64,000 nucleotides of DNA from Clostridia bacterium (GTDB lineage: Bacteria > Bacillota > Clostridia > Oscillospirales > Acutalibacteraceae), in assembly GCA_017465505.1 (NCBI GenBank), contig JAFTWB010000006.1, positions 62,001 to 126,000 of the forward strand. The letters run 5' to 3'. Positions 2,404 through 12,319 of the stretch are shown in pieces (position 1 is the first letter of the stretch; each line of letters opens with the position of its first letter). A program made the position numbers and the translations under genes. The notes beneath the pieces are model-generated. The model was given only the letters and a program-made list of their open reading frames with translations. It searched no databases and was not told the origin of the DNA.

Positions 2404-3630
2404 TTAATCAGGATAAGCTATGGCGTTGATTTCAATATATTCTATATCTTTATCAAGTCTGTGCCAGATAGCTTTGATTGCTTCAATGATATTCTCGGTG
2501 CCCGGATTTTTAAGGTAGAGAGCGTAAACATCAGGGTCGTATTCATTATATATACCGCCGATTTGCTCAACTCTCTCAAAGTCGTACTCGGGAAAATCGT
2601 AGGGAGTATAAGGGTTGTAATTGCCGTTAAGGGTAATGATAATACTGTCATCTGCGAAAGCTTCAGAGCCAAGGGCAAGGATGTCGTCAATCATAAGCTG
2701 AAGCTCTTCGTCAAGCTCAGGCTCGATTTTGGCAAGGTGCTTCTGAATTGCTGTTGCGTCCTGAATAGTGAGCTTGCCGTCACGGTTAAAGTCTGTGGTG
2801 TAACCGATGGGAAGCTTGCCTTCAAGATTCCAGTCGCTTAAGTCATCCAGATATATTGTCTGCATTTTTGCAAGAACCTTTTGAATAAGGGTAGAGTCCT
2901 TAATGCTCAGCTTGCCGTCGCGGTTGCTGTCTCCGATGAGAATGGCCATACGGGGGATTTTTTCAAAAGCTGCCTTAATACCCTGTACGCCTTCTCTGTA
3001 TGCTTTCTCAATGCTCATAACCTTGTCTTCTTTTGGCAGGTATACACCGTAGCCGTATTCAAAGGGGTAGTAAGCATTGTAGCCTTTAAGCACATAATCT
3101 CCCAGAATATCAATGGTAAGTATGGGGGATACCATATTTGATTCAAGCCATACAAGAACATATTCAGGGGTTTCGTCGGCAGTGGATAAGTAATGCTCGT
3201 AAATCTCGTCGTAGTAATATTCATATTCCAAATTGTTTTCGATTTCCAACAGCTCAAAGATTCTGCCTTTGTAAAGGTCGATGTTGGGCTCTTCCAGTGT
3301 GCCGTCGTTGAAGATTACATCTTCAAACAGTCCCGAGGCAAAAGTGTAGGTATAAATCTCGCCGTAGCCTTTGACAAAAGTTTTCTCAACCATTTCGCCG
3401 GGGTAGGGTGCATTTTCCGTTGTACCGCACCAGTTGGGTTGACTGCAATAAGCGTAAGCGTAAACATTCTCCCAACCCTCGGGATTAGTAAAGCCGATGG
3501 TTACCGAGCCGTCAATAGCAGGGTTTTCGATAATCTGGAAATTGTCTTTGCTCTGCTGAGCATTGACACCTATTACAGAAACACCTGCAATGAGTGCCAG
3601 AGTTAAAATAAGGGATAATAGTTTTTTCAT
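2404..3630 (-). CDS. Secreted protein with starch-binding-like module and internal dockerin
   Basis: Product of 408 residues. A signal peptide (MKKLLSLILTLALIAGVSVI, ending near VNA at 22-24) directs export. Residues about 43-110 resemble family 25/26 starch-binding modules: a Trp-Glu-Asn-Val-Tyr-Ala-Tyr strand, a YPGEM loop and a final VIFNDG. Residues about 232-303 are a type I dockerin with two calcium-loop repeats, GDSNRDGKLSIKD and TDFNRDGKLTIQD, each followed by an IQK helix. The dockerin is not at the end: about 105 more residues of unknown type follow. Dockerins bind cohesins on scaffoldins or the cell surface. No catalytic domain or cohesin is visible in this window. An AGGAGG site precedes ATG 3630, and a LytTR-type operator lies upstream at 3705-3738. 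Confidence 0.85.
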   Translation of the reverse strand: MKKLLSLILTLALIAGVSVIGVNAQQSKDNFQIIENPAIDGSVTIGFTNPEGWENVYAYAYCSQPNWCGTTENAPYPGEMVEKTFVKGYGEIYTYTFASGLFEDVIFNDGTLEEPNIDLYKGRIFELLEIENNLEYEYYYDEIYEHYLSTADETPEYVLVWLESNMVSPILTIDILGDYVLKGYNAYYPFEYGYGVYLPKEDKVMSIEKAYREGVQGIKAAFEKIPRMAILIGDSNRDGKLSIKDSTLIQKVLAKMQTIYLDDLSDWNLEGKLPIGYTTDFNRDGKLTIQDATAIQKHLAKIEPELDEELQLMIDDILALGSEAFADDSIIITLNGNYNPYTPYDFPEYDFERVEQIGGIYNEYDPDVYALYLKNPGTENIIEAIKAIWHRLDKDIEYIEINAIAYPD

Positions 3631-3669: not shown

Positions 3670-3697
3670 ATTATACATATGTTTTTGCAATTGTCTA
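3670..3697 (-). promoter_or_regulatory. Promoter of the dockerin gene
   Basis: On the minus strand TAGACA (3697-3692) and TATAAT (3675-3670) are 16 bases apart. The -35 box is poor and the spacing short, as expected of an activated promoter. The direct-repeat operator ends 7 bases upstream of the -35 box, the same geometry as at the transport operon promoter (6026-6053). Confidence 0.65.
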
Positions 3698-3704
3698 CTG
3701 TGTT

Positions 3705-3738
3705 GGCAGAAACGATTTGTTTTAAGGCAGAAACGATT
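3705..3738 (-). promoter_or_regulatory. LytTR-type direct-repeat operator of the dockerin gene
   Basis: Read toward the gene, AATCGTTTCTGCC occurs twice (3738-3726 and 3717-3705), identical over 13 bases with a 21-bp period (two helical turns). LytTR regulators bind paired direct repeats of this spacing just upstream of a -35 box. The same repeat in the same orientation relative to its promoter occurs at 5985-6018. Confidence 0.75.
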
Positions 3739-3786
3739 GGTTAAATGATTTTTGAGGATTTTTTAATCCTTTCATTTATTAGACGC

Positions 3787-3816
3787 AAAAAACCGAAAAA
3801 ACTCACTCGGTTTTTT
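3787..3816. terminator. Terminator-like A/T-tailed hairpin
   Basis: AAAAAACCGA (3787-3796) can pair with TCGGTTTTTT (3807-3816) across a 10-base loop. The symmetrical A and T tails would allow termination in either direction. It lies between the kinase gene end and the dockerin operator, insulating the dockerin promoter. Confidence 0.5.
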
Positions 3817-3834
3817 AAAAAAATTTGAAATTTT

Positions 3835-3866
3835 AAAAAAAGCGACAAGTCTTCAGAACTTGCCGC
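3835..3866 (-). terminator. Terminator of the two-component operon
   Basis: On the minus strand GCGGCAAGT (3866-3858) pairs with ACTTGTCGC (3850-3842), with one G-T pair and a 7-base loop. A run of T (3841-3835) follows. It sits 9 bases after the kinase stop codon. Confidence 0.8.
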
Positions 3867-3875
3867 TAAAATGAA

Positions 3876-5177
3876 TTATTCTGTTTTAAGTACCACAGAG
3901 AATGTAAAACGCATAGTGCTTTTCTCAAATATGAAGTCAACGCTTCCATCGTATTCTTTTGCAATTCGCTTAATACTCTTGATTCCAAAGCCGTGAATTT
4001 CTTTGTTCTTCTTGGTGGTTTTAAGCTCCTTGCCGTCAGTTTTTGGGGCTGATGAGCAGGAGTTTACAAGGGTAATTACCACAAAGTTGGAGTTTGTGTT
4101 TTTAACGGAGATTTCAATAATCTTGTCTTCGGATTCTTTAGCAGCTTCTACAGCGTTTTCAAGAAGGTTGTCAAGCAGAGAAGTGAGATGGATGTCGGAG
4201 ATGAATGAAAAATCAACATCTCTTACGTCGCAGAAAAAGTCAATGTCATATTCTTTGCAGGCTTCTACATATCTGTTGGCAATTGCATTAACCAGTTTGT
4301 GGTCACTGTATTTTCTGAGGTATTTAATCTGGTAATTGTCGTAGAGATTGTCGATGTAATTGATAATCCGTTGATATTGCTCATCATTTGCAAATTCTTT
4401 TATAGAAAGAAGATGACGCTTAATGTCGTGAATGAGTATGTTGGAATTTTCGTACTGAGCTTGAAGAATTGTGTAGTACTCTGTATCCAACTCTGCTTTT
4501 TGTTTTAACAGACGGTGCTCCAGGTTTTCCTTTTGAATCTTTATCATTGATTCGTGAATCCAGAAAACCACAATATTTGAGTATAGCAAAAGCACAACGC
4601 TGATAATAAAAACATAGAAAACATTTTCGGAAACCTCTGTGATTTCCATAATTCTGGAAACACCTGCCAGAAGCACGATTGAGGCAAGAGGAAGAAGTAA
4701 AAGCAGGCTTGCCTTTGAACTTCTCAGTTCTTTTCTTTGTTCAGAAATGCTCAGTTTAAGAATAAGATAAACAACAAAAAAGTATAAAAGCTTCGCACAA
4801 CTTGCCTGAATCCATAGAATGGTGTCGTTTTCCGTGTGGACACTTGTGTGAACCCCAAACAAAAGGGTGGAAAGGTGAAAAATGCACATTTCCGTAATCA
4901 GCATTGACGCCGACAAGATAAGAGAAGTGAAAAGGCTTTGCCAGACCCCTGTTTTGAAAAGTAAAAAGCAGAGAAGAAAATTGAACACAAAGAAAGCCAC
5001 CAGATTTAATATGGGAATGCCGATGTAGCTTATGCCAAACTGTAAAAGAACGGAAACAGCAAAACCTGCAAAGATGATAGGTTTAGAATGCTTTGAGGAA
5101 TACTTTTGTGAAAAGAACAACAGAGAAATTAAAGCTTCAAATATGTATGTCAGAAAATAACAGGTTGCCGATAACAT
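3876..5177 (-). CDS. GHKL sensor histidine kinase, AgrC/NatK-like
   Basis: Product of 433 residues. The first 205 or so residues contain about six membrane segments. A helix with the phosphoacceptor region IHDIKRHLLSIKEF follows (His250), then an ATPase domain with the N-box LDNLLENAVEAA and the G-box GFGIKS. This layout is that of LytTR-partner kinases such as AgrC, which sense extracellular signals through the membrane domain. The start codon overlaps the regulator stop codon (TAATG), so translation is probably coupled. No AgrB/AgrD-type peptide maker is visible nearby. Ligand unknown. Confidence 0.92.
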   Translation of the reverse strand: MLSATCYFLTYIFEALISLLFFSQKYSSKHSKPIIFAGFAVSVLLQFGISYIGIPILNLVAFFVFNFLLCFLLFKTGVWQSLFTSLILSASMLITEMCIFHLSTLLFGVHTSVHTENDTILWIQASCAKLLYFFVVYLILKLSISEQRKELRSSKASLLLLLPLASIVLLAGVSRIMEITEVSENVFYVFIISVVLLLYSNIVVFWIHESMIKIQKENLEHRLLKQKAELDTEYYTILQAQYENSNILIHDIKRHLLSIKEFANDEQYQRIINYIDNLYDNYQIKYLRKYSDHKLVNAIANRYVEACKEYDIDFFCDVRDVDFSFISDIHLTSLLDNLLENAVEAAKESEDKIIEISVKNTNSNFVVITLVNSCSSAPKTDGKELKTTKKNKEIHGFGIKSIKRIAKEYDGSVDFIFEKSTMRFTFSVVLKTE

Positions 5178-5893
5178 TAAATACCTCCCACAAAACTGTA
5201 AAAAGCCTTTTTAAATTCAGCATATTTTCTCTGAGAAATACAGGGAACACTGAGAGCTTCACTTCCTGTTTCAAATGTAATGTGGTTTTTGTCAAAGTTA
5301 ATCACATTTTGCAAATTAACAACAAAGCTCTTGTGAGAATAAATAAAACAGTGAGGTTGACTGATTTCATCGCATAACTGTTGCGGCTTTTTACTTGTTT
5401 TGAACTTTTGATTTTTTGTTACGATTATTGAGCCGTGTTTAAGGTTTTCGATATAAAGAATATCTTTTGTCTTGATAAAGTAGACCTTGTCGCAGTTTTC
5501 AATAATAATCTGCTTGCTTATCTGACCGTGATATACAATGGCATCGATAAAATTTCGGTAAAACCTTTCTTCGTCAACAGGTTTTGACAAATAACGGAAA
5601 ACGGAAATTTTCATTGCTTTGTCAAGGTAATCGGAAAAGGATGTAAGAATTATTACGATGACATCGTTGTTGTACTCTTTGAGCTTTTCCGAAAGCTCAA
5701 GGCCTGTAATTTCGGGCATTTCAATGTCAACGATAGCAATGTCATAAACAACCTTTTGGTGCCTTACAAAATCTCCGTTGTTTCTTACATCTATTTCAAA
5801 ATCAATATTGTTGTTTTTCTGAATTTTCTGCAACAAATCCATTACCTTAGCGGTAATGGTTACATCGTCGTCGCATACAAGCACTTTAATCAT
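5177..5893 (-). CDS. LytTR-family response regulator
   Basis: Product of 238 residues. The receiver domain (1-120) has the acidic pocket CDDD (8-10), the phosphoacceptor Asp56 in IVDIEMP, Thr in ILTSFS and Lys in YLSKPVD. Residues about 135-236 form a LytTR DNA-binding domain, with IENLKHGSIIVT and the final SQRKYAEFKKAF helix. LytTR proteins bind paired direct repeats about 21 bp apart, and such repeats lie at 5985-6018 and 3705-3738 on either side of this gene pair. The regulator is therefore the best candidate to control the dockerin gene and the transport operon. A GGGGG-type ribosome binding site precedes ATG 5893. Confidence 0.93.
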   Translation of the reverse strand: MIKVLVCDDDVTITAKVMDLLQKIQKNNNIDFEIDVRNNGDFVRHQKVVYDIAIVDIEMPEITGLELSEKLKEYNNDVIVIILTSFSDYLDKAMKISVFRYLSKPVDEERFYRNFIDAIVYHGQISKQIIIENCDKVYFIKTKDILYIENLKHGSIIVTKNQKFKTSKKPQQLCDEISQPHCFIYSHKSFVVNLQNVINFDKNHITFETGSEALSVPCISQRKYAEFKKAFYSFVGGI

Positions 5894-5912
5894 AACTGAG
5901 CCCCCTTAAATG

Positions 5913-5941
5913 ATTATATATTAAAAAATACGGAATGTCAT
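5913..5941 (-). promoter_or_regulatory. Promoter of the two-component operon
   Basis: On the minus strand ATGACA (5941-5936) and TATAAT (5918-5913) are 17 bases apart, about 20 bases before the regulator start. A second TATAAT on the same strand (5961-5956) has no clear -35 partner. Confidence 0.55.
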
Positions 5942-5984
5942 TATTTTCTAAGCATATTATACCATATTATTTTTTCTTGTGCAT

Positions 5985-6018
5985 AATCGTTTCTGCCTCA
6001 AAATAAATCGTTTTTGCC
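5985..6018 (+). promoter_or_regulatory. LytTR-type direct-repeat operator of the transport operon
   Basis: AATCGTTTCTGCC (5985-5997) and AATCGTTTTTGCC (6006-6018) are direct repeats with a 21-bp period and one mismatch. They match the repeats at 3705-3738 base for base apart from that mismatch. The operator ends 7 bases before the -35 box at 6026, as at the dockerin promoter. Confidence 0.75.
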
Positions 6019-6025
6019 TTTGGAC

Positions 6026-6053
6026 TTGATTCTATGTTTAGGATAAATATAAT
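6026..6053 (+). promoter_or_regulatory. Promoter P1 of the transport operon
   Basis: TTGATT (6026-6031) and TATAAT (6048-6053) are separated by 16 bases, the same short spacing as at the dockerin promoter. There are 29 bases between the operator and the -10 box in both cases. Transcripts would have a leader of about 115 bases containing the palindromes at 6091-6149. Confidence 0.6.
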
Positions 6054-6090: not shown

Positions 6091-6113
6091 ATAGTCTACA
6101 AAATGTAAACGAA
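6091..6113 (+). promoter_or_regulatory. Imperfect upstream copy of the TTTACA/TGTAAA operator
   Basis: ATAGTCTACA-AAA-TGTAAACGAA resembles the perfect palindrome at 6125-6149, with a few mismatches. The two dyad centres are 35 bp apart. Tandem copies suggest cooperative binding by an unidentified dimeric regulator. Confidence 0.45.
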
Positions 6114-6117
6114 ACTA

Positions 6118-6146
6118 TTGACTTTATAGTTTACATTTTGTAAACT
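6118..6146 (+). promoter_or_regulatory. Promoter P2 of the transport operon
   Basis: TTGACT (6118-6123) and TAAACT (6141-6146) are 17 bases apart, 30 bases before the start codon of the first binding protein. The spacer and -10 box are covered by the palindrome at 6125-6149, so binding there should repress. The second binding-protein gene has a very similar promoter (TTGACA-17-TAAACT). Confidence 0.6.
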
Positions 6147-6149
6147 ATA
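6125..6149 (+). promoter_or_regulatory. Perfect palindromic operator overlapping P2
   Basis: TATAGTTTACA (6125-6135) and TGTAAACTATA (6139-6149) are perfect 11-bp inverted repeats around TTT. No T-run follows, so this reads as a protein-binding site rather than a terminator. The regulator is not identified, and no GntR/LacI/ROK-type gene lies next to it. Confidence 0.65.
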
Positions 6150-6175
6150 ATTAAAACGTATGAGAGGTGTGTTCT

Positions 6176-7543
6176 ATGAAAAAAAGAATTTTGGCATTTT
6201 TTCTTATGGTATTACTTGCTGTTTGTCCCATACTTTCTGCTTGTGGCGAGTATGCAACGGAAGAAACCGATGGCAAACTCACAATGTATACTGTGGGAGA
6301 GCACGGTGACGCACTTAACGAGTTTGTAAAAAAATATAACAAGTACTGTGCGGTCAACGATTGTTTTGAGGATAGCGTGGAGTTTATCTGCTTCGATGAT
6401 TTTACACAGTTAAACGATACACTTTCCACAGAGCTTATGGCCGGTAAAGGCCCCGATATCCTTTCGCTCACTCAGTCGCTTCCTTTTGAAAAGCTTGTTT
6501 CCAACAAATCTCTGGCGGATATTGACAGGCTTCTTTCGGATTCATCTGTTAATATCAATTTTGATGATTACAACAAAACCATTATGGATAGCGGTGTTGT
6601 AAACGGAAAGCGTGTGCTTTTGCCCCTTTATTACAGTGTTGATGTTCTTTTTACAACTCAAGAACGACTTGAAGAGTTTGGAATTGATATTGAAAAAGAA
6701 AACATTTCTCAAATTGCTAATAAGATAAATTCTGAAAATATTGACACTCATCTGGTTTGTCCTTATTCTGCCGACAGCTTTTATTTTTCCTTTATTCGTA
6801 ACTTCATTGATTTGGAAAAGGGAACAACAGATTTTGACAGTGAAGAGTTTCGTGAAAATGCCGTGGCCTTCAAGAAAGCTCTTCTTAATTCAAAAACCTA
6901 CGCCGACCTTTCAAATTTTGAGTTTCCTTCTGAAGAAACCCACTCTGATTTTCTCTTTTCCTGCAATGAGTTTGATTTTTACGGGGGTTCTTTTACCGAT
7001 ATCGCCGAAATCTATCACAACACCTGTGCCGATGGCGTAACTCCTGTAATCTGCCCTGATTTTAGCAGAAACGGAGAAATCAGTGCCAACGTGGAAATAG
7101 GTTTTGGAATCAACGCAAACTGCAAAAAGACCGAGAAAGCCGCAAAATTTATTGAATATCTTTTAAGCGATTCTTCTCAAGGGTATTTTGCCGGAGCAAG
7201 AGAGGATGTGCTTGACGAAGTCGGCTTGTCCTTGCCTGTGAAAAATTCGGTTTTTGAAAGTGCTTTTAGTAAGGCAAAGGATTACAACTGGTACTATCCT
7301 GAGGACGACGCAGATGTAGCCGCAATGAAAGAGAATGCAAATGAGTTTCTTGAAAAAGAGTATTTGCCTTTGGTTCAAAGCGTAAAGCAGTGCCATTGGT
7401 ACGGCAAAAGCTCTCAGTTAAGCTCTTATCTGTATCAAAATGTTGCAAGAATAACCATCAGTGATTATCTTAAGGACAAAATAACTCTGGATAAATTTTC
7501 AGATAAACTTTCATCATCTTTTAATATGTATATAAATGAGTAA
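6176..7543 (+). CDS. Sugar ABC transporter substrate-binding lipoprotein (paralog 1)
   Basis: Product of 455 residues from ATG 6176. An in-frame GTG at 6167 lies inside the GAGAGGTG ribosome binding site and is less likely. A lipoprotein signal ends in LSAC with Cys23. The mature part is a family 1 extracellular binding protein, with LMAGKGPDILSLTQ near residue 85 and a C-terminal GYFAG-type region seen in carbohydrate binders. It would capture an oligosaccharide outside the membrane and hand it to the permeases at 9056-10748. It shares long identical blocks, such as KYNKYCAVNDCFEDSVEFI, with the next gene. Substrate is unknown. The neighbouring starch-binding-like dockerin protein makes an alpha-glucan a reasonable guess. 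Confidence 0.9.
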   Translation: MKKRILAFFLMVLLAVCPILSACGEYATEETDGKLTMYTVGEHGDALNEFVKKYNKYCAVNDCFEDSVEFICFDDFTQLNDTLSTELMAGKGPDILSLTQSLPFEKLVSNKSLADIDRLLSDSSVNINFDDYNKTIMDSGVVNGKRVLLPLYYSVDVLFTTQERLEEFGIDIEKENISQIANKINSENIDTHLVCPYSADSFYFSFIRNFIDLEKGTTDFDSEEFRENAVAFKKALLNSKTYADLSNFEFPSEETHSDFLFSCNEFDFYGGSFTDIAEIYHNTCADGVTPVICPDFSRNGEISANVEIGFGINANCKKTEKAAKFIEYLLSDSSQGYFAGAREDVLDEVGLSLPVKNSVFESAFSKAKDYNWYYPEDDADVAAMKENANEFLEKEYLPLVQSVKQCHWYGKSSQLSSYLYQNVARITISDYLKDKITLDKFSDKLSSSFNMYINE

Positions 7544-7593: not shown

Positions 7594-7622
7594 TTGACAC
7601 AGGTGATTTCAAAGTGTAAACT
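7594..7622 (+). promoter_or_regulatory. Internal promoter of the second binding-protein gene
   Basis: TTGACA (7594-7599) and TAAACT (7617-7622) are 17 bases apart in the 109-base gap between the paralogs. Both the sequence and the spacing repeat P2 of the first paralog, as if the promoter had been duplicated with the gene. The full palindrome is not preserved: only GTGTAAACT of the right half is recognisable. Confidence 0.6.
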
Positions 7623-7652: not shown

Positions 7653-9032
7653 TTGAAAAGGAAAATCTTAGCCCTGTTTTTAACATCGGTTATGGCTCTT
7701 TGTCCCTTGCTTTCGGGTTGTAACGCCATAGGGATGAATCAAAGCGATAAGCTGACCTTTTACTGCGTGGGTGATGGCAGCGACGAGCTTTTTGAATTTC
7801 TGAAAAAATACAATAAATACTGTGCGGTCAACGATTGCTTCGAAGACAGTGTGGAGTTTATTTCCTTTGACAGTTACAACGAAATGAACTCAGCCCTTGC
7901 AACAGAGCTGATGGCAGGCGGTGGGCCTGATATTCTTTCTCTTACTCAGACATATCCCTTCGAAAAGCTGGTGCGAAACAATGCCCTTGCGGATATTGAC
8001 GAAATCGTCAGCACATATAACGCAGATGTGAATTTCGATGATTTCAACGAAAAGGTAATGAACAGCGGTGTTGTGGACGGCAAAAGGTGTATACTTCCTC
8101 TTTATTATCGCCTCAATGCTCTTTACACCACCGAAGAAAAGCTTGCCAAGTTTGGTCTTGACAGGGAGAATTTCTCTTTTGATACCATTCTTCAGGCCTA
8201 TGAAAACGGCTCTGTTAACTCTTATTTTGTAAATCCTTATTCAGCCGAGGCTTTTTACTTTTCCTTTATCCGCCGGTACATCGATTTTTATGAGGGTACT
8301 GCGGATTTTGAAAGCGATGAGTTTAAGGATTATGCTGAAAAATTCAGACAGGCAGTTCTAAAAGGCGGTACTTACAAGGAACTTCACTCTAATGAGCCTG
8401 ATATTCCTGAAAATGAGTTTGAGCCTGAGGATGATTCAGGCTATATTTTCTCAGCCAATGAAGATAATTACTACGGTGGTTCTCTGGCAAGCTTTGCTCA
8501 GGATTACCTCATAGCTATGGAGTACGGTCAACAGCCTCCTGTGCTTGTACCTGACTTTAACCGTAAGGGCGAAATCACCGCAAGCATTGAGGTTGGCTTT
8601 GCTATAAACGCCAACTGTAAAAAAATGGATAAGGCGGCAAAGCTTATCGAATACCTTCTCAGCGATTCTTCTCAGGGTTATTTCGGCGGCGGCAGAGATG
8701 ACAGTAACTCAATGGGACTTTCAATTCCCGTTAAAAACTCTGTTTACGATAACGCCGTGAAAGAGGCGCTTGCTTACGAAAAGCATTTCTGGGGCTTTGA
8801 GTTTAACCGTGACAACGTGGAGCTTAAAAACAAAGCTTTAACCGAGATGTATATTCCTATGCTGGAGAGTATCTCCTCCTGTAACCTTTACGGCTACAAT
8901 TCTCAGCTTAAATCCCACCTTTATCAGAATGTAATAGGTGAGGTAATAGTAGATTATCTGGATGGTAAAATCACCACCAACAAGCTCTCTCAGCGGCTTA
9001 CCTCTGCCGTTACAATTTATATGAGCGAATAA
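7653..9032 (+). CDS. Sugar ABC transporter substrate-binding lipoprotein (paralog 2)
   Basis: Product of 459 residues. The start is TTG 7653, 5 bases after GAGGTGA. The lipoprotein signal ends in LLSGC with Cys23. It is a family 1 binding protein closely related to the preceding gene, with shared segments including NKYCAVNDCFEDSVEF, LMAGGGPDILSLTQ and IEYLLSDSSQGYF. It differs by an acidic insertion around residues 245-265 (PDIPENEFEPEDD). Two binding proteins for one permease pair suggest related ligands of different length or affinity. It is followed after 23 bases by the first permease gene. Confidence 0.9.
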   Translation: MKRKILALFLTSVMALCPLLSGCNAIGMNQSDKLTFYCVGDGSDELFEFLKKYNKYCAVNDCFEDSVEFISFDSYNEMNSALATELMAGGGPDILSLTQTYPFEKLVRNNALADIDEIVSTYNADVNFDDFNEKVMNSGVVDGKRCILPLYYRLNALYTTEEKLAKFGLDRENFSFDTILQAYENGSVNSYFVNPYSAEAFYFSFIRRYIDFYEGTADFESDEFKDYAEKFRQAVLKGGTYKELHSNEPDIPENEFEPEDDSGYIFSANEDNYYGGSLASFAQDYLIAMEYGQQPPVLVPDFNRKGEITASIEVGFAINANCKKMDKAAKLIEYLLSDSSQGYFGGGRDDSNSMGLSIPVKNSVYDNAVKEALAYEKHFWGFEFNRDNVELKNKALTEMYIPMLESISSCNLYGYNSQLKSHLYQNVIGEVIVDYLDGKITTNKLSQRLTSAVTIYMSE

Positions 9033-9055
9033 CCTCACAACAGGGAGTGAATACA

Positions 9056-9907
9056 TTGAAATATAAACGAAAAGAAGGCTTTGCGGCACTGCTTTTTATT
9101 CTGCCCTCAGTTCTGGGCATAGCAGTGTTTTACGTTGTGCCGTATATAATCTGTTTTGTAAAGAGTCTTTTCATAGGCAACACCTTTGTGGGACTGAATA
9201 ACTATTTTGAGCTTTTTACAAATAAAACCTTTCTCCTTGCTCTTAAAAACACAGGCATTTTTACTGTTATTGCAATTCCCTTGCTGATGATAGTATCTTT
9301 TCTCATAGCTTTGTTCTTAAATTCTTTCAAAAGCATTTCGGGCTTTTTCAGAAGCTCTCTTCTTATTCCCGTAGTTGTGCCCATTGCTTCTCTTGTGTCT
9401 GTGTGGCAGCTTCTCTTTGATGATTACGGAGCTATAAACGGACTTCTGAATAACCTTGGCCTTGATACCGTGGGGTTTTTCAACTCAGGCTTTTCTATGG
9501 TGATGATTATTCTCATCTACGTCTGGAAATACTGCGGTTTCTGCGTTGTCCTCTTTACGGCAGGACTTGCAGGTGTGCCTCAGCACCTTTACGAAAGTGC
9601 CCGACTTGACGGTGCCTCAAGCTTTAAGATGGTTACCAAAGTTACCATTCCTATGATAACTCCTACAACTTTCTTTGTTTTCTTAATGGAGATTATCTAT
9701 TCCTTCAAGATTTTCAGAGAGGTTTTTGCTATTTTCGGCGACTATCCCGACGAAAACGTGTATTTCTTGCAGAACTTTATAAACAACAATTACTATAACC
9801 TTAACTATCCTCGTCTTTCGGCGGCTTCAATAGTTCTTTCTCTGTTTATTGTTATTCTGCTGCTTGTTTTCTATCTCTTTGAGCGTAAGCACAGCTTTAC
9901 ACAGTGA
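9056..9907 (+). CDS. ABC sugar transporter permease, MalF/UgpA type
   Basis: Product of 283 residues from TTG 9056, chosen because AGGGAGTGA ends 5 bases before it. An in-frame GTG at 9047 lies within that site. It has six membrane segments. The cytoplasmic loop that docks on the ATPase is YESARLDGASSFKMVTKVTIPMITP (starting near residue 180), the usual EAA motif of CUT1 permeases. It forms the membrane channel with the MalG-type partner encoded 7 bases downstream. No ATP-binding protein is encoded in this operon, so a shared MsmX-type ATPase elsewhere is presumed. Confidence 0.92.
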   Translation: MKYKRKEGFAALLFILPSVLGIAVFYVVPYIICFVKSLFIGNTFVGLNNYFELFTNKTFLLALKNTGIFTVIAIPLLMIVSFLIALFLNSFKSISGFFRSSLLIPVVVPIASLVSVWQLLFDDYGAINGLLNNLGLDTVGFFNSGFSMVMIILIYVWKYCGFCVVLFTAGLAGVPQHLYESARLDGASSFKMVTKVTIPMITPTTFFVFLMEIIYSFKIFREVFAIFGDYPDENVYFLQNFINNNYYNLNYPRLSAASIVLSLFIVILLLVFYLFERKHSFTQ

Positions 9908-9914
9908 GGTTAAT

Positions 9915-10748
9915 ATGAAAAAGACTAAACTGATTTTAAAATACATTCTTCTGATAATCATAGCTCTTGTGTTTTTGTTCCCTGTAATCTATATGCTGGC
10001 GGCTTCCTTTATGCCACAGGCTCAGGTAAACACAATGCTGGATTTTACAAATGAAGAATATAAGACAATTGAGCTTATACCTGAAAAAGCCACCTTTGAG
10101 CAGTTTTATCAGGTGTTTTTCCGCAGACCGGAGTATCTTGAAAAATTCTGGAACTCGGTTATTATGACTTTTCCCACGGTAATAGGTCAGACGGTTGTTT
10201 CGGCCTTGGCGGCATTTGCCTTTGCAAAGCTGAATTTTCCTTTGAGAGATAAGCTTTTCTTTGTATACATAATTCTGCTTATCCTACCCTTGCAGGTTAC
10301 TTTAGTGCCTAATTATATGGTTCTGGAGAACCTTAATTTGCTTAATAATTTTCTGGCGGTAATACTTCCCGGAACCTTCTCTGCCTTTGGTATTTGTCTT
10401 CTCAGGCAAAGTATCAAATACATCCCCGATTCATCCATCGAGGCAGCTCGTGTTGACGGTGCAAGCTACTTCAGAATCTTCACACGTATTATCCTGCCGC
10501 AGATAAAAGGCGGACTTGTTACACTGGTGCTTCTCACATTTATAGATAACTGGAATGTTGTTGAACAGCCTCTTATCTATTTCGAGGACGAGGGAATGTA
10601 TCCTCTCTCTGTAACTCTTGGTGAAATCGGCAACAGTGACTTCGGTATTGTTTTTGCCTGCGGTGTTATGTTTATGATTGTGCCTCTGCTTATTTTTGCT
10701 TACGGTCACAAGGATATTGACTCACCCTTTATCAGCACAGATAAATAA
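9915..10748 (+). CDS. ABC sugar transporter permease, MalG/AraQ type
   Basis: Product of 277 residues. ATG 9915 is used because TGAGGT precedes it. Longer in-frame starts fall inside the previous gene. It begins with a membrane segment ending VFLFPVIYMLAASF and has the EAA loop EAARVDGASYFRIFTRIILP near residues 175-195, typical of CUT1 inner-membrane components. It pairs with the preceding permease. The periplasmic-side loop after the first segment is longer than in MalG-type sugar permeases of model species, which is common in this family. Confidence 0.92.
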   Translation: MKKTKLILKYILLIIIALVFLFPVIYMLAASFMPQAQVNTMLDFTNEEYKTIELIPEKATFEQFYQVFFRRPEYLEKFWNSVIMTFPTVIGQTVVSALAAFAFAKLNFPLRDKLFFVYIILLILPLQVTLVPNYMVLENLNLLNNFLAVILPGTFSAFGICLLRQSIKYIPDSSIEAARVDGASYFRIFTRIILPQIKGGLVTLVLLTFIDNWNVVEQPLIYFEDEGMYPLSVTLGEIGNSDFGIVFACGVMFMIVPLLIFAYGHKDIDSPFISTDK

Positions 10749-10758
10749 GGAGGTTACT

Positions 10759-11172
10759 ATGAAAAAGGATAAGATAAAAAAATTCAGCCTGATTTTTGGC
10801 GTGGTGTTCTTTCTTTTGCTTTTGTTTCTCACATATTTTTCCAGCACTATTGATAAAATGCTTATACCCAACGTAAAAACCACAGAAGTTGTGAGAGCTT
10901 CTCTTTCCGAGGAGGGTATGATGTACTCTCAGGAAGACAGATTTCTTGTACCCGTTAAGGCGGTAAGTGATTTCGGGGATAACTCTACAGTTTATACAGT
11001 TAACTGGGTTGACGGCGATTATTATGTAGGTGTGGCAGATATCCAGATTATCGACACCGACGGAATGTATTACGAGGTAACGTCTTCCGGCCTTTATGGC
11101 GGTAATCAGATTATTTACAGCACCTCAAAAAGCCTTCAGAGCGGTGACCGCGTTTATGTAGTGGAGGGCTGA
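10759..11172 (+). CDS. Small membrane-anchored adaptor-like protein
   Basis: Product of 137 residues from ATG 10759, preceded by AAGGAGGTT. One N-terminal membrane segment (about 8-30) is followed by an extracellular domain. The last 75 residues resemble the C-terminal beta domain of periplasmic adaptor (membrane fusion) proteins: a VPVKAV strand, a short VYTVNWVDGDYYVGVADIQI stretch, SGLYGGNQII and a final GDRVYVVEG. The lipoyl and coiled-coil hairpin domains of normal adaptors are missing. It lies directly before a MacB-like permease gene (1-base gap), echoing the macA-macB order. The similarity call is by eye and moderate. Confidence 0.55.
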   Translation: MKKDKIKKFSLIFGVVFFLLLLFLTYFSSTIDKMLIPNVKTTEVVRASLSEEGMMYSQEDRFLVPVKAVSDFGDNSTVYTVNWVDGDYYVGVADIQIIDTDGMYYEVTSSGLYGGNQIIYSTSKSLQSGDRVYVVEG

Positions 11173-11173
11173 T

Positions 11174-12319
11174 ATGACCCTGAAAAAACATCTTTTTATT
11201 TTAATTGTCTTTCTGCTTCTTGCTTCTCTTTCTTTGAGCGGTTTTCTGTTTTTTGCAGATAACGCCCTTGACAAACTGCCCTTTGCCGGTATGGCAAACT
11301 ACAACCCTCTTGAGGGAGAAGAGCCCATTGAGGTCAGCTACTTTGACAAAATCAGCAAAAGAGTCCGTACAAAGCATTACAGCTTCGCCTCAGTGGGTGA
11401 AGAGGTAAGCTTAAAAGGCTATGAGGTTTTCCCGACTTATATTACCTGCGATTATTTTGATATTTTAAATCAGCCCCTTAATGGCGTAAGTTTTAGCGAA
11501 GAAGAGCAGCTCTCCAAGGCAAAGAAAGCGATAATAAGCGATACCCTTGCCTTGAAGCTCTATTTTAATACCGACGCCGTTGGCAAAAACCTTGAACTAA
11601 ACGGCGAAAGCTATATTATCTGCGGTATAATTGAGGAAAGCAAAAACCTCATTGATAAATTTTCCCAGGATGGCAAGGAGCGTGTATATATTCCTTATAC
11701 CTTAGCCGAAAATCCCGAGAAGCTGCCTGTGCATACCATTGTTTATGATACACGCACCGCAAGTGCAGGTGTTATAGAGCAAATGAACACCCCTCAGTAT
11801 CATTTCACAAGCTTAAGCGAAAAAGCACAGGTTATCAACTGCCTCAGACACGTCGCCTTTCTTGTTATCTATGTAGCTCTGGCAATTACTTTGATGTACC
11901 TGTGGTACAAAATCTGCTCAAAGCTCTTAAAAGAAATAGGGGAGAACCTTAAGAAAAACTACTTCTTAAAGTCTTTTCTCAGTGTTCCCTTAAAGTATAT
12001 TTTCTTTGTACTTACGGCTCTGGGTATACCTGCTTTGTTGGTGTTTATTTTTCTGAAATCCGATTTCAGTATTTTCATTGTTTCAAAGTATATTCCTTAC
12101 GATAATCTTTTTGATATAGGCTATTACTTTGAAAGGCTTTGTGAAGAAGCTCAGTATATGAATACTCTTGCATTGGCAGGAGATACCTACCGCATAAATT
12201 TATATACCTCAACATTTTCTACCTGTCTTTGGATAGGTGCAATCTTTACGATTTTCTTCATAATCACCATTGTTCTGCTCCTGTCCCTTATTAAAAAGCT
12301 ATTTAAAAAATATTCTTAA
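11174..12319 (+). CDS. MacB-like ABC permease without an ATPase domain
   Basis: Product of 381 residues. The topology is one N-terminal membrane segment (about 6-27), an extracellular domain of about 190 residues and three C-terminal segments (near 228-250, 275-295 and 350-375), as in MacB permeases. The extracellular part has the MacB core-domain hallmark of a substitute-residue strand, ISDTLALKLYFNTDAVGK, followed by LNGESYIICGIIEES. It lacks a nucleotide-binding domain, and no MacB-type ATPase gene is next to it. It ends the transport operon. A role in exporting or handling a lipid or peptide next to the sugar importer is conceivable but unproven. Confidence 0.7.
   Translation: MTLKKHLFILIVFLLLASLSLSGFLFFADNALDKLPFAGMANYNPLEGEEPIEVSYFDKISKRVRTKHYSFASVGEEVSLKGYEVFPTYITCDYFDILNQPLNGVSFSEEEQLSKAKKAIISDTLALKLYFNTDAVGKNLELNGESYIICGIIEESKNLIDKFSQDGKERVYIPYTLAENPEKLPVHTIVYDTRTASAGVIEQMNTPQYHFTSLSEKAQVINCLRHVAFLVIYVALAITLMYLWYKICSKLLKEIGENLKKNYFLKSFLSVPLKYIFFVLTALGIPALLVFIFLKSDFSIFIVSKYIPYDNLFDIGYYFERLCEEAQYMNTLALAGDTYRINLYTSTFSTCLWIGAIFTIFFIITIVLLLSLIKKLFKKYS

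What the first reader, a model, noticed from the sequence alone, without database searches (positions are those of the whole stretch)
3705..6053. Two promoters share one LytTR-type operator geometry around a two-component system
The 13-bp repeat AATCGTTTCTGCC occurs in pairs at 3705-3738 (toward the dockerin gene) and 5985-6018 (toward the transport operon, one mismatch). Both pairs have a 21-bp period. Both end 7 bases before a weak -35 box with a 16-base spacer and TATAAT, with 29 bases from operator to -10. The only transcription regulator between them is a LytTR protein, a class known to bind 21-bp-period direct repeats. This suggests a small regulon in which an AgrC-like sensor turns on a secreted starch-binding-like dockerin protein together with an oligosaccharide transporter.
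Basis: partly seen in the sequence, partly recalled or inferred. Interest (0 to 1): 0.78.

Follow-up and report, generated by a model that had tools for sequence, protein, structure and literature searches.

The report
Pheromone-type switch for starch-capture genes
A gut bacterium related to the starch specialist Ruminococcus bromii appears to use a leftover bacterial-pheromone switch, with no pheromone-processing gene found, to turn on a starch-binding surface protein and a sugar-type transporter together through two matching DNA landing sites.

Summary
A 13-bp repeat occurs in two head-to-tail pairs of period 21, each followed by 7 nt, a -35-like hexamer, 16 nt and TATAAT. They are the only two such pairs (up to 3 mismatches) in the 1.9-Mb, 84%-complete genome.

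In relatives, operators of this family lie beside orthologues of the same response regulator, nearly always 29 nt before the -10. Depending on the genome they precede agrD-agrB pheromone genes, dockerin genes or solute-binding-protein genes. A motif built without the window ranks the two window sites first in 42 own-genome loci. Operator base 3 co-varies with regulator residue 221, consistent with this LytTR protein reading it.

No AgrB was found in this genome. One relative keeps an agrB fragment between operator and transporter genes. Best reading: an agr-type two-component system that lost its pheromone genes and kept the cargo, here a CBM26-dockerin protein and an ABC importer. Binding, activation and the signal are inferred. 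A BlaI-like palindrome pair also marks the transporter promoter region.

The parts
3705..3738 (-). operator pair 1 (13-bp direct repeats at 3726-3738 and 3705-3717, period 21), before the dockerin gene
3670..3697 (-). core promoter of the dockerin gene: TAGACA (3692-3697), 16 nt, TATAAT (3670-3675)
2404..3630 (-). CBM26 + dockerin protein, 408 aa, with a signal-peptide-like start (by eye)
5985..6018 (+). operator pair 2 (13-bp direct repeats at 5985-5997 and 6006-6018, one mismatch), before the transport operon
6026..6053 (+). core promoter: TTGATT (6026-6031), 16 nt, TATAAT (6048-6053)
6091..6148 (.). two palindromes (6091-6113 imperfect; 6126-6148 ATAGTTTACATTTTGTAAACTAT) over a second possible promoter (TTGACT-17-TAAACT, 6118-6146); a likely BlaI-type repressor site
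5177..5893 (-). response regulator, receiver + LytTR, 238 aa (AgrA-like); residue Q221 co-varies with operator base 3
3876..5177 (-). sensor kinase, 433 aa, hydrophobic N-terminal half + HATPase_c_5 (AgrC-like)
6167..7543 (+). solute-binding protein 1 (SBP_bac_8)
7653..9032 (+). solute-binding protein 2 (SBP_bac_1); a promoter-like TTGACA-17-TAAACT lies at 7594-7622
9047..10748 (+). two sugar-importer-type permeases (9047-9907; 9849-10748 as called, its real start probably later)
10678..12319 (+). two co-directional ORFs: a 164-aa protein with a weak RND_mfp-like end, and a MacB_PCD protein

Best explanation
The two repeat pairs are operators of the LytTR response regulator encoded between them. 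When the AgrC-like kinase phosphorylates it, the regulator binds the two head-to-tail half-sites on one face of the DNA, just upstream of the -35 region, and helps RNA polymerase start at the -10 lying 29 nt further on. One signal thus switches on both the CBM26-dockerin protein and the solute-binding-protein/permease operon. The system descends from an agr pheromone locus in which operator, agrD and agrB preceded cargo genes; here no agrBD is visible and the cargo sits directly behind the operator. Shown: the sites, their rarity, the conserved geometry, their association with regulator orthologues, and operator/residue covariation. Inferred: binding, phosphorylation, activation, and descent by loss of agrBD. 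Unknown: the signal and the transported substrate.
For: Only 2 paired sites in the genome, 0 for the control. Picking by repeat alone in relatives gave sites upstream of agrD/agrB (L080, L081, L193, L043; AgrB confirmed by Pfam), a dockerin gene (L203) and other genes. The -10 match peaks at exactly 29 nt: over the 12 sites I kept, mean 4.75/6, next-best offset 3.33; over all 16 candidates listed, mean 4.06, next-best 2.81; 0 of 200,000 random-offset draws reach it in either test. Among 14 regulator loci that gave no site to the motif, 9 show one, including three copies in L202 and two in L204 before dockerin-type frames, and sites before solute-binding-protein genes in L194 and L197. A motif built without the window ranks both window sites first. 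Operator base 3 is T with Q221 in 12 of 18 regulators, G with Q in 1, and C with R in 5; the R class lies in two separate clades. AgrD-like ORFs follow the operator in L080, L081 and L193. AgrB was not found in G000; a 55-aa agrB remnant lies between operator and solute-binding-protein gene in L197. The kinase is 56% identical to that of the agr locus in L080. The geometry agrees with published LytTR repeats (PMC6193735 passages; PMC4227749 passages).
Against: No binding or expression data. In 5 of the 22 regulator loci scanned (L038, L044, L083, L087, L199) the motif gave no clear site. L197 (17.8) and L198 (18.9) are barely above an unexplained hit of 17.3 in L195. The two window promoters lack the TGn extended -10 that 19 of 22 sites carry and have -35-like boxes instead, so they may depend less on the regulator. 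Dockerin genes are abundant (62 matches in G000), so adjacency alone is weak evidence. Position 3 was chosen for the covariation test after looking, and its Fisher value ignores phylogeny. A paralogous regulator (53% identical) in the same genome could share the sites.
Confidence: 0.84

Rival explanations
1. It is still a complete quorum-sensing system: agrD and agrB lie unlinked in the missing part of the genome, and the pheromone sets expression by cell density.
For: The assembly is 84% complete. Related loci carry agrB/agrD behind the same operator type. G455, a dockerin-type relative, has an AgrB elsewhere (C90).
Against: No AgrB in G000 by Pfam or by an eight-sequence profile; none either in G457 (88% complete), G465 (91%) or G545 (100%), which keep operator and regulator. 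No AgrD-like ORF with a ribosome-binding-like site was found in the four window gaps examined; the rest of the genome was not searched for AgrD.
Confidence: 0.15
2. The paralogous orphan regulator at C23:92181-92888, not the local one, is the main occupant of the two operators, or the two share them.
For: 53% identity; it keeps Q at the position of Q221 (AQRRY), adjoins another CBM26-dockerin gene, and has no kinase beside it.
Against: Its own neighbourhood shows only a loose period-20 pair (seen by eye) and no motif hit; most relatives with the operator have the local kinase-regulator pair beside it.
Confidence: 0.12
3. The regulator represses or merely tunes both promoters; they work mainly through their -35-like and TATAAT boxes.
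For: The window promoters have better -35-like boxes (5/6 and 4/6) than the relatives (0-3 of 6, L085 4) and a perfect TATAAT.
Against: The operator lies upstream of, not over, the promoter; most relatives have no -35 box, which calls for an activator.
Confidence: 0.1
4. The repeats are a chance or mobile-repeat similarity with no regulatory role.
For: Single 13-mers with up to 3 mismatches are no commoner than expected; the bare pair pattern is near background outside the own genome.
Against: Paired sites are unique in the genome, recur across genera beside the same regulator and keep one fixed distance to the -10.
Confidence: 0.02

Closest known systems
agrBDCA pheromone system (AgrA operators before agr promoters)
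   Same: AgrC-like kinase, receiver + LytTR regulator, pair of direct repeats upstream of a weak promoter; relatives carry agrD-agrB behind the same operator type
   Different: No agrB found and no agrD seen here; targets are a CBM26-dockerin gene and an ABC importer; 16-nt spacer, against 18 and 20 nt reported for the S. aureus agr P2 and P3 promoters (PMC4227749 passages)
LytTR Regulatory Systems (HdrRM/BrsRM type)
   Same: Direct repeats with the same period close upstream of a promoter (PMC6193735 passages)
   Different: Those pair a LytTR regulator with a membrane inhibitor (recalled); here there is a receiver domain and a kinase
Ruminococcus bromii amylosome
   Same: Dockerin protein with a CBM26 module; cohesin matches in the genome
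   Different: In the passages and searches used here nothing describes a dedicated regulator of amylosome genes; this proposes one for one component
Clostridium thermocellum AgrD-type peptide (PMC5322536 passages)
   Same: An agr-type signal element in a bacterium known for cellulosomes (recalled), raised under xylose inhibition
   Different: There the peptide is known and no cognate regulator; here the regulator is known and no peptide

Membership tests
LytTR direct-repeat operator | LytTR-domain regulator encoded nearby | tested here: met
   PF04397 45 bits, cut-off 22.6
LytTR direct-repeat operator | Two direct repeats of period about 21 a few nt upstream of a promoter | tested here: met
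   published separation and position from PMC6193735 passages
LytTR direct-repeat operator | Binding by the regulator | not testable with these tools
   only indirect: residue-base covariation
agr quorum-sensing system | AgrC-type kinase with HATPase_c_5 | tested here: met
   75.4 bits; 56% to the kinase of an agrB/agrD locus
agr quorum-sensing system | AgrA-type regulator | tested here: met
   receiver + LytTR; in one clade with agr-locus regulators
agr quorum-sensing system | AgrB | tested here: not met
   0 matches in G000, 84% complete
agr quorum-sensing system | AgrD | tested here: inconclusive
   none with a ribosome-binding-like site in the 4 window gaps scanned, while found in 3 relatives; the rest of the genome was not scanned
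LytTR Regulatory System (LRS) | LytTR regulator without receiver, with membrane inhibitor (recalled definition) | tested here: not met
   receiver domain and kinase present
Amylosome component | Dockerin and starch-binding module on one protein | tested here: met
   CBM26 29.8 bits (cut-off 28.1), Dockerin_1 24.2 (22.9), both narrow; 2 cohesin matches in G000, 1 over the cut-off
Amylosome component | Assembly on a scaffoldin; starch binding | not testable with these tools
   needs protein assays
CUT1 carbohydrate importer | Solute-binding protein plus two permeases | tested here: met
   no ATPase among the proteins scanned from this stretch; substrate unknown

The most novel reading that the evidence does not exclude
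In the Ruminococcus bromii genus the agr pheromone circuit has repeatedly been converted into a switch for starch-capture and sugar-import genes: the pheromone genes decay, the operator stays, and the AgrC-like sensor now answers either to other species' peptides or to a starch-derived cue. Amylosome composition would then be set by a former quorum sensor.
Probability: 0.4. Interest if true: 0.8.

Novelty: new variant of a known kind. Interest (0 to 1): 0.66.

Why it matters
R. bromii is described as a keystone degrader of resistant starch (abstract openings of PMC5814915 and PMC9112005), yet the passages of these two papers that I saw name no regulator of the amylosome. This gives a concrete candidate: a named regulator, two 34-bp operators and a fixed promoter geometry that can be tested in vitro and used to predict targets in other genomes. 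It also offers a series of genomes in which a pheromone system seems to change from self-signalling to nutrient-gene control, with an intermediate (agrB followed by dockerin and CBM26 genes, L199), a decayed intermediate (L197), and genomes without detectable agrB.

Tried and rejected
Tried without result: a single-protein scan of genome contigs (0 relatives). Order-wide pair pattern: 5 of 394 genomes matched, the own genome among them, and the reversed control also matched in 2, so outside the own genome the bare pattern is close to background. Relaxed genus pattern: 45 of 161 genomes, but by my hand count of the table 39 of 161 also match the control, so only hits beside the regulator were used. 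No motif site in the paralogue's neighbourhood L038, only a loose period-20 pair. Two solved-structure searches gave no alignment reaching a LytTR-DNA complex over the C-terminal part, so residue 221 could not be placed in a solved complex.

Rows dropped: of 16 intergenic candidates listed, 12 were used; the four left out were window 5882-5915 (overlaps the regulator start), L085 2658, L196 15005 (about 6 kb from the regulator) and L087 7867. Put back in, they lower the mean -10 match at 29 nt from 4.75 to 4.06, still the highest offset. L086 and L194 are the same site and L100, L165 and L043 the same locus, each counted once. L042 has the same site type as L193 and was not counted. L199, L044, L083, L038 and L087 were left out of the covariation table for want of a clear site.

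Considered and rejected: an LRS-type one-component system (a receiver domain and kinase are present); chance repeats (geometry and recurrence); dockerin adjacency as evidence by itself (62 dockerin matches in G000).

Literature absence claims rest only, in an open-licence library.
Full report
Observation. The 13-mer is exact in three half-sites and has one mismatch in the fourth. Both pairs have period 21, and each is followed by 7 nt, a -35-like hexamer (TAGACA; TTGATT), 16 nt and TATAAT. Single 13-mers with up to three mismatches are no commoner than in shuffles (27 against 20.85). The paired form, searched over the whole genome of 1,907,076 bases (84.23% complete), occurs only at these two places; the reversed control occurs nowhere.

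Surroundings. Between the sites lie a receiver + LytTR regulator and a HATPase_c_5 kinase. One site faces a gene for a protein with a signal-peptide-like start (by eye), a CBM26 and a dockerin domain; the other faces two solute-binding proteins, two permeases of the sugar-importer type and two further ORFs. The genome holds 37 CBM26 matches at E <= 0.01, 62 dockerin matches, and 2 cohesin matches of which 1 is over the cut-off, so it has amylosome-type parts.

Other LytTR proteins. Five LytTR matches are found in the genome, this one included. One is a 53%-identical paralogue that adjoins another CBM26-dockerin gene and has no kinase beside it.

Relatives. Among 161 genomes of the genus, 28 (own included) have a regulator of this family at E <= 1e-40. 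The two closest regulators come from other organisms: L079 (63%) and Anaeromassilibacillus An172, L080 (62%); L200 within the genus has 61%. Neighbours fall into kinds. AgrB genes, confirmed by Pfam in all 8 loci tested, stand in L080, L081, L083, L193, L195, L199, L201 and L043. Dockerin-type genes stand beside the regulator in the window, L038, L202, L203 and L204, and in L199, where an ORF with a dockerin and a subtilase with CBM26 follow agrB. Solute-binding-protein or permease genes stand in the window, L193, L194, L197 and L201. In L193, L199 and L201 the cargo genes lie downstream of agrB on the same strand. In L197 an agrB remnant (58-aa frame; 55 aa at 54%) lies between the operator and the first solute-binding-protein gene.

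Operators in relatives. Picking pairs by repeat sequence alone gave 16 intergenic candidates, of which I used 12. In these 12 the match to TATAAT peaks at exactly 29 nt (mean 4.75 of 6; next-best offset 3.33). With all 16 it is 4.06 against 2.81, and with the 13 outside the window 4.00 against 3.00. In the 12-site and 16-site tests 0 of 200,000 random-offset draws reach the observed mean. A motif of 10 sites (the two window sites and 8 others) was scanned over 27 loci, which contain 22 distinct regulator loci of this family. A site was found in 17 of these 22; L038, L044, L083, L087 and L199 gave no clear one. Of the 14 loci that had given no site to the motif, 9 show one: L085, L194, L195, L196, L197, L198, L201, L202 and L204. 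The highest score in dinucleotide shuffles was 13.6 over 901,856 positions. Real unexplained hits reach 17.3 (L195), apart from a second operator-like pair in L085 (27.9), so L197 (17.8) and L198 (18.9) are marginal; L194, whose site is close in sequence to that of L197, scores 22.4.

Dockerin loci. L202 has three sites and L204 two. Four of the five are followed by dockerin-type frames by Pfam or BLAST. One of these, L202 9875, is followed by a short signal-peptide frame and an 80-aa dockerin-like frame, apparently a broken gene, then a 230-aa dockerin gene. The frame behind the fifth site, L202 11410, is cut by the contig end. The frame behind L202 8960 matches the window dockerin protein over residues 144-306, that is, beyond the dockerin itself. 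A motif that leaves the window out ranks the two window sites first in 42 own-genome loci (32.0 and 30.3; next 20.2).

Geometry. Over the 22 aligned sites, 21 have at least 4 of 6 matches to TATAAT at 29 nt; L085 has it at 30. Ten of the 22 were picked with a motif that contains the -10, so the repeat-only tests above are the fair ones. TGn just before the -10 is present in 19 of 22, and these sites match TTGACA in at most 3 of 6 positions where the -35 would lie. The two window promoters lack TGn and instead have 5/6 and 4/6 -35-like boxes. If the LytTR element is taken as positions 2-10 of the 13-mer, the elements are 12 bp apart and end 10 bp before the -35, which is what the LRS paper reports as commonest for LRS operons (PMC6193735, passages). 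AgrA repeats reported near -60 fit too (PMC4227749, passages).

Specificity. Regulators with Q at the position of Q221 have T at operator base 3 in 12 cases and G in 1; those with R have C in 5 of 5 (18 regulators with a clear site; Fisher p = 1.6e-4 without the G row, not corrected for relatedness, position chosen after inspection). Six of 244 alignment columns separate the C and T classes; only Q221 does so with one residue in each class. In the tree the R class lies in two separate clades (L202/L204 and L194/L197/L201), so the paired change happened at least twice on that tree. This is the best indirect evidence that this regulator reads this operator.

Is it an agr system? It works like one, but I do not file it as one. 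The kinase and regulator are agr-type. AgrB is not found in this genome, nor in G457, G465, G545 or G018 (14 genomes examined, 9 with a match, among them the G525 remnant and a marginal G468 match with a stop). AgrD-like ORFs stand behind the operator in L080, L081 and L193 but in none of the four window gaps scanned. The assembly is incomplete and AgrD was not sought elsewhere, so unlinked genes cannot be excluded.

Second input. Between operator 2 and the first solute-binding-protein gene lie two palindromes, 6091-6113 and 6126-6148. With up to 3 mismatches the only other place in the genome is upstream of a BlaI/MecI-like repressor gene (Penicillinase_R) followed by a BlaR1-type Peptidase_M56 gene. 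The transport operon is therefore probably under two controls.

Literature. Searches for amylosome with quorum sensing (4 papers, listing only), dockerin with LytTR (3 papers, listing only), agr with cellulosome (3 papers; PMC5322536 passages seen), Ruminococcus bromii with AgrB (none) and dockerin with agr and Ruminococcus (5 papers; PMC2721979 and PMC12484212 passages seen) showed no report of agr-type control of dockerin or amylosome genes. The library holds open-licence papers only, and no paper was read in full.

Verdict. It is strengthened by comparative evidence and widened: a pheromone-type two-component system seems to have been rewired to starch-capture and import genes in this genus. 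Binding, activation and the signal are not shown.

Noticed in passing
window 6091-6148; L241 and L256 (G000:C25:233139): Two AGTTTACA-n3-TGTAAACT-like palindromes before the transport operon recur in the genome (up to 3 mismatches) only upstream of a BlaI/MecI-like repressor gene; L256 holds two tandem pairs of a 120-aa BlaI-like and a long BlaR1-like ORF (one pair checked by Pfam).
   Followed up: partly
L040 8659-8692, G000:C25: A period-21 repeat pair (GGCAACTTG core) lies about 100 nt before a stand-alone LytTR protein gene, like an autoregulated LytTR system with a different half-site.
   Followed up: no
L038 7310-15116, G000:C23: The orphan paralogous regulator sits between a CBM26-dockerin gene and a large VWA/SpaA/FctA gene, with no kinase beside it.
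   Followed up: partly
window 5913-5983 (-): Two promoter-like sites for the regulator-kinase genes; the outer one begins 1-2 nt from operator pair 2, so that operator may also act on the regulator's own transcription.
   Followed up: no
window 3670-3697 and 6026-6053: Unlike nearly all aligned relatives, both window promoters lack the TGn extended -10 and have -35-like boxes instead.
   Followed up: partly
L200 8249-9268, G545: A 339-aa open frame begins with an XRE-like segment and runs into the regulator; other loci (L081, L199, L201) have a separate XRE-like gene before the regulator (L083 similar by eye).
   Followed up: no
L202 8960-11443, G457: Three near-identical operator-promoter cassettes, each before a separate frame, as if the cassette had been duplicated with its cargo; the middle one is followed by an apparently broken frame.
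   Followed up: partly
L085 2658-2691: A second operator-like pair (27.9) lies about 2.3 kb from the first, with no downstream gene identified.
   Followed up: no
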